From Xestospongia bergquistia (taxonomy: Eukaryota > Porifera > Demospongiae > Haplosclerida > Petrosiidae), in assembly GCA_963965975.1 (NCBI GenBank), contig OZ014425.1:736001-800000 (forward strand): a stretch of 64,000 nucleotides of DNA. The letters run 5' to 3'. The notes below the pieces were generated by a model. That model ran no database searches, was not told where the DNA came from, and was given only the letters and a program-made list of their open reading frames with translations. Both the position numbers and the translations under genes were made by a program. Shown piece after piece: positions 18,804 to 38,880 of this stretch; positions within the stretch are counted from its first letter, which is position 1, and the number at the start of each line of letters is the position of its first letter.

Positions 18804-20913
18804 ATGACTGCCTTTTTACCTCCGAATTTGCTGGCATTATTTGCTCCAAGAGAGCCTCTTCCATATTTTCCACCAGTAGACGAACTATCTTGGGAAAGGA
18901 AACCATGGCCCTATTCGGGAGTAGCTCAATACTTGGAGGAATTTGAAGTAAGTAATAAGATATGTTAACAATATTAATGATATTTAGGATCCGAGTGACA
19001 CACCTGCGCCCACTAGAGGAGAGACAAGGGATGAACGTCGTATTCGAAAGGTAGCATCATATAAATATATTTCATATTTTAATAGTTTCTGTAGAGACAC
19101 GAACGTGAGGAGCGTTATCGAAGTAATTTGGAAGGTGCTGTTGGTTCTTGTAAGTTGTATCTTAAGTTTTAGGCTAGATGTTAATGTCCTTCTTTAGGGG
19201 ACCCCAGTAGTGATCCCAGTATCTCTGGAGATCCTTTTAAAACTCTTTTTGTAGGAAGAATAGTAAGTGATTTCTTTCTCATTTTATTATTTTCTAAATT
19301 ATCATCACAGAACTATGACACATCAGAAGGTAAACTTAGACGAGAATTTGAATCATTTGGACCAATCAAACGAGTTAGTTTTCCCATCACATTTCGTATA
19401 ATTTATCACCATTTGTTTAGATTTCTCTTATCACTGACAACGATACTGGCAAACCACGTGGCTATGCCTTTGTAGAGTATGAAAATGAACGAGATATGCA
19501 TTGTAAGTGAACTACAAGTACTGGCTTGTGCCAAGAATTTTAAGTATTGTTTGATAGTGTGATTATTAATGGCCCTGTACTCAGGATACAAAGCTAGCAT
19601 TTATATATTAATTAGTGTATCCAGATTATGGGGTCTTACCTATATGAGCATGTAGTACTTAATAATTCCCTTTTCCTTTTTGCCCAGCTCTGACATGAGC
19701 AGTGGGTTAATTGTTCTATTGTTGTAAGTTGTAAGTGGGTCAGGTAATATATGTTTTTTTACATGGTAGTTGTACATGTATGTAATTGTGTAATTGGTAA
19801 GTTTCTTAGAATGAATAAGCTAATGAGCCTGGTAAGTTAATGGTGACTTAACCACCAAGTCTTATAGTGTTTGTAAGCTTTGGTAAGTTAGTGGTAAGTT
19901 TCTTTCCCAAGGTTTTTTATAACATTCACACTTTGTAAGTTGGTAAGTTTAGCCTTAGTATGTGGTAAGTTAGTAAGTAGTTATAGAAGCTTTGTAAAGT
20001 TATAATTACTAATACTAGTTCTATACAATAAGTTTGGTAAGTTGATTTAATATGATGATCACATGATCAGATTATGTGGGTTCCTGTTATTGCTATGTAT
20101 AGCTGCTTACAAATATGGTGATGGTAAGAAGATAGATGGCAAGCGTGTTGTGGTAGATGTGGAGAGAGGGAGAACTGTTAAAAGCTGGAGACCACGAAGA
20201 TTAGGTACTAGAGATGTTTTGCTGGCTTAGCAAAAAATTTACATGTTTTAATTGGATGTGTAGGTGGAGGTCTCGGAGGGACTCGACGTGGTGCACCTAA
20301 TGAATGTATAAAGTATTCTGGTCGTGTGGATGAACGGTTAGTATTATGTGATATTGTACAATGGTAATATTACCTTGTTTGTGTGACAGTGATATGGATA
20401 AAGATAAAGAAAGAGATAAAGATCGTGAACAAGATCGTGACAAGAGAAAAGAAAGAGATCGGGATAGAGATAGAGGGCGTGACAGGGATAGAGATCGAGA
20501 TCGAGATAGACGACGTCGGAGTCGTAGCAAAGAAAGAGATAGAGACAAGAGGAGAGGAAGAAGTCGAAGCAGGTACAATCAGTAATTATTATTTTTATAA
20601 TTATTATGATTTTTATCCAGAGAAAAGGATAAAGAGAGAAAAGATCGTAGTCGTAGTCGTGATCGAGATAGAAAGGATAGAGACAAAAAGAAAGACAAAG
20701 TTAGTGTATGTGACTCTATTTTGACTTGATAGTTAATTCTATTAGGATCGTGAAAAGAAAGACAAGTCAAGGGACAAAGATAGAGAGAGTAGGAAAGAAC
20801 GAAGAGAGAGCAAACATGACATGAAGAAGGAGTCTCAGATTGAAGCAACTAATGGTAATGCTAATCACAATTCTGATAATATACCTTATAAAGAGGAGCC
20901 TATGGAAGCATAG
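18804..20913 (+). CDS. SNRNP70: U1 small nuclear ribonucleoprotein 70 kDa (U1-70K)
   Basis: Eleven exons: 18804-18947, 18988-19050, 19095-19149, 19198-19262, 19311-19373, 19421-19502, 20103-20204, 20264-20336, 20390-20572, 20621-20699, 20746-20913; 358 residues. The N-terminus [20 protein letters not shown] is the conserved segment that contacts U1C and Sm proteins in U1 snRNP. The RRM has RNP2 LFVGRI and RNP1 GYAFVEYE and binds stem-loop I of U1 snRNA; it is followed by [20 protein letters not shown]. The C-terminal RD/RE/RS-repeat tail is shorter than in vertebrates (437 residues in human). The protein helps U1 recognise 5' splice sites. Its sixth intron (19503-20102) is ten times longer than its others and looks regulatory. 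A poly(A) signal AATAAA follows at 20984-20989. Confidence 0.96.
19503..20102 (+). promoter_or_regulatory. Candidate autoregulatory intron: alternative 3' splice site plus cluster of eleven GTAAGT sites
   Basis: A strong polypyrimidine tract ends in TTTTTGCCCAG at 19687, well before the normal acceptor (20102). Splicing exon 6 to 19688 would read Ser-Leu-Thr and then TGA at 19696-19698. Immediately downstream, GTAAGT occurs at 19724, 19731, 19797, 19832, 19883, 19894, 19935, 19943, 19965, 19973 and 20037, mostly as GGTAAGTT. This hexamer pairs with the 5' end of U1 snRNA. Established knowledge: in vertebrates a nonproductive U1-70K isoform uses an alternative 3' splice site that needs an adjacent cluster of regulatory 5' splice sites. 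The functional claim here is inference. Confidence 0.7.
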
Positions 20914-21504
20914 ACAGACATAATATAAGTAGTTGTTGTAATATTTTTGTGTTAATTAGTTTTCATTTTGTTTTGTTTTTGAAAATAAAGCAATTGTCTT
21001 ATTTTGGAATGATTTTATCAAATGTTGGAATACACTCATAGTATGTAGAGTAGCATTAATGCTACTGTACCTATAGACTTATCACTTAAAATTTTGAAGT
21101 TTTTGATGTTTTTTTAACTGTATATTCCAATCAGTTCCCAGAGACTTCCACATAATATATGTCATGTTCATTTTGTATGTGTATCTGAAAATATAGTTAT
21201 CAGACTTTCAGTTTTGGTAGTTGATGAAACATTTGACAAATTAAGCACACCTCATTTTGTCAACTACAAAATTTTATTTGTATTAAAAATTACATTACAT
21301 GTATTCAATAATTGCATAAAAAAATTATCACATGTAATGCAAAAACTAATAAAGTGACACACTTATTGAAACTTGGTACTACCTCCTAAAGAATCATGAA
21401 ATCATTAAATATACTGACTATGTACTACTTTTAATAATAACTATAATTATATAATTTTATTCTTCATACAAAATATATATTGGGTAATATACTATGTATT
21501 AAAA
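20914..21504. other. Intergenic between convergent SNRNP70 and TBC genes
   Basis: AT-rich 3' flank shared by two convergent genes. Apart from the AATAAA signal of SNRNP70 (20984-20989), I see no gene, repeat array or structured element. Confidence 0.6.

Positions 21505-34400: not shown

Positions 34401-38880
<4,480 letters not shown>

What the first reader, a model, noticed from the sequence alone, without database searches (positions are those of the whole stretch)
19503..20102. U1-70K gene carries a cluster of eleven GTAAGT sites behind an NMD-producing alternative 3' splice site
Seen: intron 6 of SNRNP70 holds 11 GTAAGT hexamers in about 320 bp (19724-20042), most as GGTAAGTT, far more than base composition predicts. 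Directly upstream is a strong acceptor (TTTTTGCCCAG, ends 19687) whose use reads three codons and then TGA. Known: in human cells a nonproductive U1-70K isoform is made through a U1C-dependent alternative 3' splice site that requires an adjacent cluster of regulatory 5' splice sites bound by U1 snRNP. Inference: the same negative feedback loop, in which U1 snRNP represses its own subunit, exists in a sponge and is either very ancient or convergent.
Basis: partly seen in the sequence, partly recalled or inferred. Interest (0 to 1): 0.88.

Follow-up and report, generated by a model that had tools for sequence, protein, structure and literature searches.

The report
Sponge U1-70K gene's self-limiting splicing switch
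A sponge gene for a core part of the splicing machine carries, in its one long intron, a dense cluster of likely binding sites for that same machine next to a splice site that would spoil the message, which looks like the built-in brake known from vertebrates.

Summary
Intron 6 of the U1-70K gene (19503-20102) is 600 bp; the other nine introns are 40-59 bp. It holds 11 GTAAGT at 19724-20042 plus its own donor, none on the other strand. In 264 kb masked for tandem repeats it is the densest cluster of any non-simple hexamer; genome-wide pattern searches found mostly tandem arrays and one other scattered four-site cluster. The acceptor ending at 19687 gives S-L-T-stop.

New evidence. (1) It is the intron of the human U1C-dependent switch: vertebrate exon-7a products leave the normal protein here. 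(2) Truncated products diverging at this codon occur in other sponges and many animals. (3) This genome's U1 snRNA has A at position 2, and 9 of 11 sites carry the matching T at +7, against 50 of 190 elsewhere. (4) The plant event suggested to be the same lies in the neighbouring intron.

Best reading: a U1-sensing unproductive-splicing switch, old in animals. Without RNA from this species, use of 19687, NMD and U1C dependence are inferred.

The parts
18804..20915 (+). U1-70K (SNRNP70) coding region, 11 coding exons: 18804-18947, 18988-19050, 19095-19149, 19198-19262, 19311-19373, 19421-19502, 20103-20204, 20264-20336, 20390-20572, 20621-20699, 20746-20915; 358 aa
   Evidence: open joined frame; homologues named U1 small nuclear ribonucleoprotein 70 kDa; only U1snRNP70_N match found in the genome
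19503..20102 (+). Intron 6, 600 bp, phase 1, after ...ENERDMH; the other nine introns are 40-59 bp
   Evidence: retention reads Cys-Lys-TGA (TGA at 19508-19510)
19421..19502 (+). Exon 6, upstream partner of both the productive and the predicted unproductive junction
19668..19687 (+). Predicted alternative 3' splice site CCCTTTTCCTTTTTGCCCAG
   Evidence: 15 pyrimidines in the first 16 of these 20 positions; 9 of 4,100 + strand AGs in the window reach that; 9th of 45 in the intron by a nine-acceptor matrix
19688..19723 (+). Start of the predicted poison segment, 36 nt up to the first cluster site; longer if a later site is used or if the rest is retained
19696..19698 (+). Premature TGA reached by the junction 19502/19688, after Ser-Leu-Thr
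19724..19729 (+). Cluster site 1, GTAAGT (weaker, -6.8 kcal/mol with own U1)
19731..19736 (+). Cluster site 2, GTAAGT (weaker, -6.0)
19797..19802 (+). Cluster site 3, GGTAAGTT (strong, -10.0)
19832..19837 (+). Cluster site 4, GGTAAGTT (strong, -10.8)
19883..19888 (+). Cluster site 5, GGTAAGTT (strong, -10.8)
19894..19899 (+). Cluster site 6, GGTAAGTT (strong, -10.0)
19935..19940 (+). Cluster site 7, GTAAGTT (weaker, -6.8)
19943..19948 (+). Cluster site 8, GGTAAGTT (strong, -10.0)
19965..19970 (+). Cluster site 9, GGTAAGTT (strong, -10.8)
19973..19978 (+). Cluster site 10, GTAAGT (weaker, -6.1)
20037..20042 (+). Cluster site 11, GGTAAGTT (strong, -10.5)
20083..20102 (+). Productive 3' splice site of intron 6, CCTGTTATTGCTATGTATAG, with the poorer pyrimidine tract (11 of 16)
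20103..20204 (+). Exon 7, productive downstream partner ([12 protein letters not shown]...)

Best explanation
Intron 6 of this sponge U1-70K gene is a cis-acting sensor of intact U1 snRNP. When U1 snRNP is plentiful it binds the cluster of sites at 19724-20042, most of which fit this genome's own U1 snRNA better than the gene's real donors do. Through exon-definition contacts this switches on the acceptor ending at 19687, or blocks removal of the intron; either way the reading frame stops at once (S-L-T-stop, or C-K-stop) and the message is expected to be degraded. When U1 snRNP is scarce the route 19502 to 20103 is taken and more U1-70K is made. Shown here: the sequence anatomy, its rarity, identity of the intron position with that of the vertebrate switch, fit to the resident U1 snRNA, and truncated products at the same codon in other sponges and animals. 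Inferred: U1 occupancy, use of 19687, dependence on U1C, decay of the message, and descent from one ancestral animal switch.
For: Cluster against chance and the genome. Only long intron of the gene and immediate stops on both unproductive routes. Same intron as the human switch: the antisense oligonucleotides printed in PMC3798272 give a target whose translation CMVGIRVCIMGKI matches CMVGIRVCMMGKT in P0043 (unnamed), a protein that leaves normal U1-70K exactly after DMH; another frame (VWLV*GFV) matches the tail of P0024, a bird. Own U1 snRNA 5' end UAACUUACCUG (3 of 4 genes aligned); the cluster has T at +7 in 9 of 11 sites against 50 of 190 GTAAGT in 200 kb; 7 of 11 sites pair at -10.0 to -10.8 kcal/mol, the ten real donors at -4.1 to -7.1. 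Truncated products: of 120 listed proteins (375 found) 94 carry a foreign tail directly after DMH, 7 end at DMH and 1 two residues later; P0001 (83% to Dysidea) and P0004 (78% to Halichondria) have tails that are not plain read-through of a donor, and P0002, P0003, P0005, P0101 look retained; all six fall in one clade with the window and three named sponges, support 95/90. Specificity: 3-kb loci around the U1C-like gene, LUC7 exons and three U1 snRNA genes show at most 3 GTAAGT in 325 bp.
Against: No RNA from this species: the truncated product was not found (best hit 68% identity), though its own normal protein was not found either (best 72%). Human sites A and B, which carry the U1C dependence, are weak (PMC3798272), whereas 7 of 11 sites here are strong. 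All 11 sites have T at -2, which does not pair with U1. A small acceptor matrix does not favour 19687 (9th of 45). Tail peptides differ between sponge lineages, so conservation of the acceptor itself is not shown. The database proteins may be annotation or assembly errors in part. The reversed-pattern controls of the genome searches outnumber the GTAAGT patterns (2,670 against 206; 94 against 5; 1,203 against 22), so clustering of short words as such is common in this genome.
Confidence: 0.74

Rival explanations
1. The cluster acts as a bank of decoy donors that holds up removal of intron 6, so the unproductive output is intron retention alone and the acceptor at 19687 is unused. (This is nested in the wider wording of the best explanation.)
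For: Retention reads C-K-TGA; 50 of 120 listed proteins have retention-like tails, among them P0003, P0005 and P0101 of the sponge clade, and P0002 (GKKPNIH) belongs with them; most cluster sites out-pair the gene's real donors; the plant event is retention (passages of PMC11489095).
Against: The acceptor lies 36 nt upstream of the first site and has the best pyrimidine tract in the intron; P0001 and P0004 have tails that do not read through a donor; in human cells the sites activate an upstream 3' splice site.
Confidence: 0.3
2. The cluster guards the long intron against premature cleavage and polyadenylation (U1 telescripting) rather than steering splicing.
For: U1 snRNP inhibits nearby cleavage and polyadenylation (passages of the review PMC8037041).
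Against: No AATAAA or ATTAAA in the intron, only AATATA and AATGAA; the intron is only 600 bp; it does not explain the same-codon truncated products.
Confidence: 0.06
3. The cluster is a by-product of local sequence duplication (a decayed minisatellite) with no function.
For: Most listed GTAAGT triples in this genome lie in tandem repeats; sites 1 and 2 sit in a short 7-bp repeat; the sites share the form TKGTAAGTT, and six exact repeats of 7-8 nt lie outside the core; reversed-pattern controls show that short-word clusters are common here.
Against: No long tandem array in the intron, irregular spacing of 7-66 nt, longest exact spacer repeat 4-5 nt in the two rows from this intron, 12 sites to 0 on one strand, and +7 T fitting the resident U1.
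Confidence: 0.1
4. The sites bind a protein or act as a DNA element and their likeness to 5' splice sites is incidental.
For: T at -2 in 11 of 11 sites (background 61 of 190) is not explained by pairing with U1.
Against: One-strandedness (12 to 0), position inside U1-70K, complementarity including the genome-specific +7 position.
Confidence: 0.06

Closest known systems
Vertebrate U1C-dependent U1-70K switch (intron 7, 'exon 7a'; PMC3798272)
   Same: Same gene, same intron position (after DMH), an acceptor inside the intron with a stop behind it, and a cluster of 5' splice-site-like sequences downstream in which the two sites nearest the acceptor are weaker ones
   Different: 11 sites, 7 of them strong and fitted to the local U1, against three close sites (A and B weak, C strong) plus a distant D; U1C dependence and NMD untested here; no likeness seen between the sponge tail (S-L-T) and vertebrate tails
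U11-48K and U11/U12-65K feedback through tandem U12-type 5' splice sites (USSE; passages of PMC3584512)
   Same: An snRNP bound to repeated 5' splice sites activates an upstream 3' splice site in the message for its own protein
   Different: Minor-spliceosome sites and genes, sites in tandem; here U2-type sites in U1-70K
Plant U1-70K retained sixth intron (passages of PMC11489095)
   Same: Unproductive U1-70K message, reduced when U1C is knocked down in Arabidopsis according to that paper
   Different: The plant products diverge after GPIKR, the position of sponge intron 5, not after DM(H/K); output is retention
Poison-exon autoregulation of SR and other splicing factors (abstracts in the listings, e.g. 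PMC4379411)
   Same: Unproductive splicing coupled to decay as a homeostat
   Different: There a splicing factor acts on its own or related messages; here the proposed sensor is U1 snRNA pairing with many pseudo-donors (contrast drawn from general knowledge)

Membership tests
Animal U1-70K/U1C unproductive-splicing switch | Lies in the U1-70K gene | tested here: met
Animal U1-70K/U1C unproductive-splicing switch | In the intron homologous to human intron 7 | tested here: met
   Human exon-7a sequence from the oligonucleotides matches tails that start right after DMH; sponge intron 6 interrupts the codon after DMH. Human genomic DNA was not seen
Animal U1-70K/U1C unproductive-splicing switch | Alternative 3' splice site that brings in a premature stop | tested here: met
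   Sequence present, S-L-T-TGA; pyrimidine tract for, nine-acceptor matrix against; that it is used was not testable
Animal U1-70K/U1C unproductive-splicing switch | Adjacent downstream cluster of cryptic 5' splice sites complementary to U1 | tested here: met
Animal U1-70K/U1C unproductive-splicing switch | Weak sites that need U1C next to a strong one | tested here: inconclusive
   Four sites pair at -6.0 to -6.8 and seven at -10.0 to -10.8 kcal/mol; the two nearest the acceptor are weak, as are human A (-6.9) and B (-4.2) against C (-9.2), as I placed them on the oligonucleotide target; U1C need unknown
Animal U1-70K/U1C unproductive-splicing switch | U1C-dependent use of the 3' splice site | not testable with these tools
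   needs knockdown
Animal U1-70K/U1C unproductive-splicing switch | Isoform degraded by NMD | not testable with these tools
   needs RNA with translation or NMD blocked; four introns lie downstream of the stop
Animal U1-70K/U1C unproductive-splicing switch | Unproductive product observed | tested here: inconclusive
   Seen in other sponges (P0001, P0004 and retention-like P0002, P0003, P0005, P0101), not for this species
USSE (U11 snRNP-binding splicing enhancer) | Tandem U12-type 5' splice sites in U11-48K or U11/U12-65K | tested here: not met
   Sites are GTAAGT in U1-70K
Plant U1-70K intron-6 retention | Unproductive event at the intron after GPIKR | tested here: not met
   59 of 114 rows diverge right after GPIKR; 2 differ after DMK (P0244; P0337, which also departs after GPIKR); the sponge intron at that place (intron 5) is 47 bp

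The most novel reading that the evidence does not exclude
The U1-70K switch is a homeostat present in the last common ancestor of living animals, kept at one intron position while its poison sequence turned over; its sensor is a many-site U1 ruler that follows each lineage's own U1 snRNA 5' end, as the +7 T sites here follow an A at U1 position 2, and plants built an analogous switch independently in the neighbouring intron of the same gene.
Probability: 0.45. Interest if true: 0.82.

Novelty: new member of a known kind. Interest (0 to 1): 0.68.

Why it matters
The feedback loop that balances U1-70K and U1C was worked out in human cells and shown in mouse and zebrafish (PMC3798272), and one survey took the truncated U1-70K event to be absent from other animals (section of PMC8211703). 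A sponge with the same layout, truncated products at the same codon in many animals, and a plant event one intron away turn the age of this loop into a question that RNA data can answer. The fit of the cluster to a variant U1 snRNA also offers a natural test of co-evolution between U1 and its target sites.

Tried and rejected
Viral contigs was scanned for related U1-70K loci: 11 pattern matches, no relative. No DNA of other sponges was reached, so the cluster itself could not be compared between species; that is the main gap. Window against Rfam: no family. A first fixed-spacing pattern (two GGTAAGTT eight bases apart) had no match in the genome.

RNA folding of the intron gives z -2.22 on 20 shuffles, and the GTAAGT sites are on average no more open than the rest of the intron. 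A CUUACC at 19635, which looks like the U1 5' end, is predicted to pair upstream rather than with the cluster; dropped as a mechanism.

Polyadenylation guarding was considered and set low. The idea that other U1-related genes share the cluster found no support: 3-kb loci around the U1C-like gene, LUC7 exons and three U1 snRNA genes have at most 3 GTAAGT in 325 bp; the whole genes were not read. One other scattered GTAAGTT cluster, at C1:1774771-1774826, has four sites in about 55 bp and no long spacer repeat (5 nt, like this intron); no gene was recognised there. In the listing, cut short by the tool, a few further triples do not look tandem (for instance C1:3861162, C2:9569524, C3:2511623, C6:6977788); they were not followed up. 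A zf-U11-48K search hit two fingers side by side on C10; not used. An acceptor matrix from nine introns did not favour 19687 and is reported as evidence against. A loop shared with plants by descent at the same intron was rejected on position, with the caveat that this rests on protein tails, not on plant DNA.
Full report
What is there. The + strand gene at 18804-20915 encodes U1-70K: the eleven coding exons join into an open frame of 358 residues, the best hit is Dysidea avara U1-70K at 72% identity over 59% of the query, and the U1snRNP70_N domain was found once in the 146 Mb assembly. Nine of ten introns are 40-59 bp; intron 6 is 600 bp, phase 1, right after ...ENERDMH.

The cluster. Intron 6 holds 11 GTAAGT between 19724 and 20042, plus its own donor, and none on the opposite strand. 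Zero of 20,000 shuffles match it. Background: in 200 kb from fixed places of the same genome, counting 325 bp downstream from each of 190 GTAAGT on its strand, 154 find only themselves, 34 find two and 2 find three. Because a cluster picked by eye needs a fair control, every non-simple hexamer was counted in 264 kb. Before masking, tandem arrays reach up to 30. With tandem repeats masked (6.3% N in all, withheld bases included), GTAAGT in this intron comes first of 3,683 hexamers with 11, and the best hexamer that does not overlap it reaches 7. The masking took nothing in this intron; at a lower score limit sites 1 and 2 lie in a 7-bp unit repeated 2.3 times.

Genome-wide patterns. Three GTAAGT with gaps up to 30 occur 206 times; the listing is cut short, shows mostly tandem arrays, and holds a few triples that do not look tandem and were not followed up. 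Three GTAAGTT with such gaps occur 5 times at 3 places: this intron, a scattered four-site cluster on C1 near which no gene was recognised, and a 30-bp tandem on C13. Three GGTAAGT with gaps 20-50 and 0-30 occur 22 times, 2 of them here. Of the other 20, ten rows (some cut at 80 letters by the tool) were put through a script: nine share an exact spacer repeat of 10-24 nt and one is an 11-bp tandem, while the two rows from this intron share 4-5 nt; the remaining ten rows lie at two places already represented, C2:3858xxx and C8:18696xx-18698xx. The tool's own control, the pattern read backwards, is far commoner (2,670, 94 and 1,203 matches), so clusters of a short word are not rare as such in this genome; what stands out is an irregular cluster of this size of this word in this gene.

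The unproductive routes. The acceptor ending at 19687 has 15 pyrimidines in 16 positions, the best in the intron and reached by 9 of 4,100 AGs on the + strand of the window; the productive acceptor at 20102 has 11. A matrix built from only nine short-intron acceptors ranks 19687 ninth of 45, which counts against calling it strong. Joining 19502 to 19688 gives S-L-T-TGA; retaining the intron gives C-K-TGA. Four introns follow, so either product fits the usual NMD rule (established knowledge).

Same intron as in humans. The paper on the human switch (PMC3798272; abstract and parts 1-5 of 7 of the main text were read, and passages) describes a U1C-dependent 3' splice site in intron 7, a stop, and cryptic 5' splice sites A, B, C and D; mutating A, B and C together abolishes inclusion of exon 7a in a minigene. 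It reports the effect in human, mouse and zebrafish. The two antisense oligonucleotides printed there overlap; their target translates as CMVGIRVCIMGKI in one frame and VWLV*GFV in another. The search with the sponge truncated product returned P0043 (unnamed), with tail ...CMVGIRVCMMGKT..., and P0024 (Aphelocoma), with ...SVWLV, both leaving the normal protein right after DMH. Human intron 7 and sponge intron 6 are therefore placed at the same codon; human genomic DNA was not seen.

Same-codon truncation across animals. One search found 375 proteins and listed 120; the other 255 were not seen. Of the 120, 94 carry a foreign tail directly after DMH, 7 end at DMH, 1 ends two residues later and 18 run on normally. 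By a simple rule 50 tails look like intron read-through and 44 do not; the rule misfiles a few (P0002 belongs with retention), and the 44 include deposited gene models that may be errors. Named rows with non-retention tails include hagfish (P0053), a bird (P0024), rat (P0023), a tick (P0045), a beetle (P0028), butterflies and moths (P0087, P0088, P0094, P0103), a porcelain crab (P0034) and a millipede (P0057). Three unnamed rows, P0018, P0054 and P0071, share the tail FRAAGN, and P0087, P0088, P0094 and P0102 share YPAV or YSAV, as expected if poison segments are conserved within groups. Six unnamed rows fall inside the sponge clade: P0001 (83% to Dysidea; AITLAA) and P0004 (78% to Halichondria; TASRPGC) with non-retention tails, and P0002, P0003, P0005 and P0101 with retention-like tails. 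Five of the six have longest contigs of 0.9-1.9 kb and P0101 2.9 kb, with the upstream exons already joined, so they probably stem from RNA (inference). [quoted passage not shown] abstract and two sections read); these rows speak against that.

Fit to the resident U1 snRNA. Four U1 snRNA genes score above the Rfam cut-off; three were aligned, and all three begin UAACUUACCUG where the family consensus has AUACUUACCUG. The true 5' end of the RNA was not mapped. An A at position 2 pairs with U at intron position +7. The cluster has T at +7 in 9 of 11 sites; GTAAGT elsewhere has it in 50 of 190 (200 kb) and 17 of 71 (rest of the window). With this U1, 7 of 11 sites pair at -10.0 to -10.8 kcal/mol and 4 at -6.0 to -6.8, while the gene's ten real donors lie at -4.1 to -7.1. 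The two sites nearest the acceptor are weak, as are human A and B as I placed them on the oligonucleotide target. Unexplained: T at -2 in 11 of 11 sites (background 61 of 190), which cannot pair with U1. It may mark shared ancestry of the sites, or sites meant to bind U1 but to splice poorly. If the sites arose by local copying, the +7 preference is also less independent than 9 of 11 suggests.

Plants. A 2024 study found less retained sixth intron of Arabidopsis U1-70K when U1C is knocked down and suggested a conserved loop (passages of PMC11489095). Of the 114, 59 diverge right after GPIKR, including the 204-residue Arabidopsis product P0241; 2 differ after DMK (P0244, a gene model that resumes the frame, and P0337, which also departs after GPIKR); three more rows that the script set apart there read normally by eye (P0336, P0347, P0351); 28 continue past it and 22 lack the motif. 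The query ran past DMK, so products truncated there would have been favoured. A few of the 59 resume the frame later and may be gene-model errors. GPIKR is the place of sponge intron 5 (47 bp). The plant event is therefore next door, not the same, and independent origin is the simpler reading, though a shift from one intron to the next cannot be excluded.

Mechanism and rivals. The best account is exon definition: U1 snRNPs on the cluster activate the acceptor at 19687, as shown in human cells and as described for the minor spliceosome's USSE (passages of PMC3584512). Retention by decoy donors is the serious rival and has the same outcome. Guarding against premature polyadenylation, decayed repeat and an unrelated binding protein are less likely for the reasons given. 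Searches for earlier reports in sponges or other invertebrates (open-licence papers, only the top rows listed) showed no row on U1-70K in sponges; passages of a Drosophila knockdown study were seen and did not mention this event (PMC4617972).

Verdict. What is missing is RNA from this species and intron DNA from its relatives.

Noticed in passing
window 36256-37070: Tandem array of a 27-bp unit (TATTGTTCTATTATTAGGTGTATTACT), about 19 clean copies up to 36765 and a more degenerate stretch after it.
   Followed up: no
L029 (G000:C13 about 90470-90566, minus strand): A 30-bp unit holding what looks like an exon end plus its donor (GAGTCATT|GTAAGTT) is repeated four times, giving four identical donor-like sites in a row.
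   Followed up: partly
window 19724-20042: All 11 cluster sites have T at -2, against 61 of 190 GTAAGT in 200 kb; pairing with U1 does not explain it.
   Followed up: partly
L021-L023 (G000:C8 and C11): Three U1 snRNA genes begin UAACUUACCUG instead of AUACUUACCUG, a change of the first two positions that alters pairing with +7 and +8 of donors.
   Followed up: partly
G000:C10:6985902-6986126 (L039, L040): Two zf-U11-48K type fingers about 80 bp apart; possibly a two-finger CHHC protein rather than U11-48K (the naming is recalled).
   Followed up: no
G000:C1:1774771-1774826 minus strand (L027, L028): The only other scattered cluster of GTAAGTT found: four sites in about 55 bp, no gene recognised around it.
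   Followed up: partly
P0241 and 58 other rows: Plant truncated U1-70K products diverge after GPIKR, one intron upstream of the animal event.
   Followed up: yes
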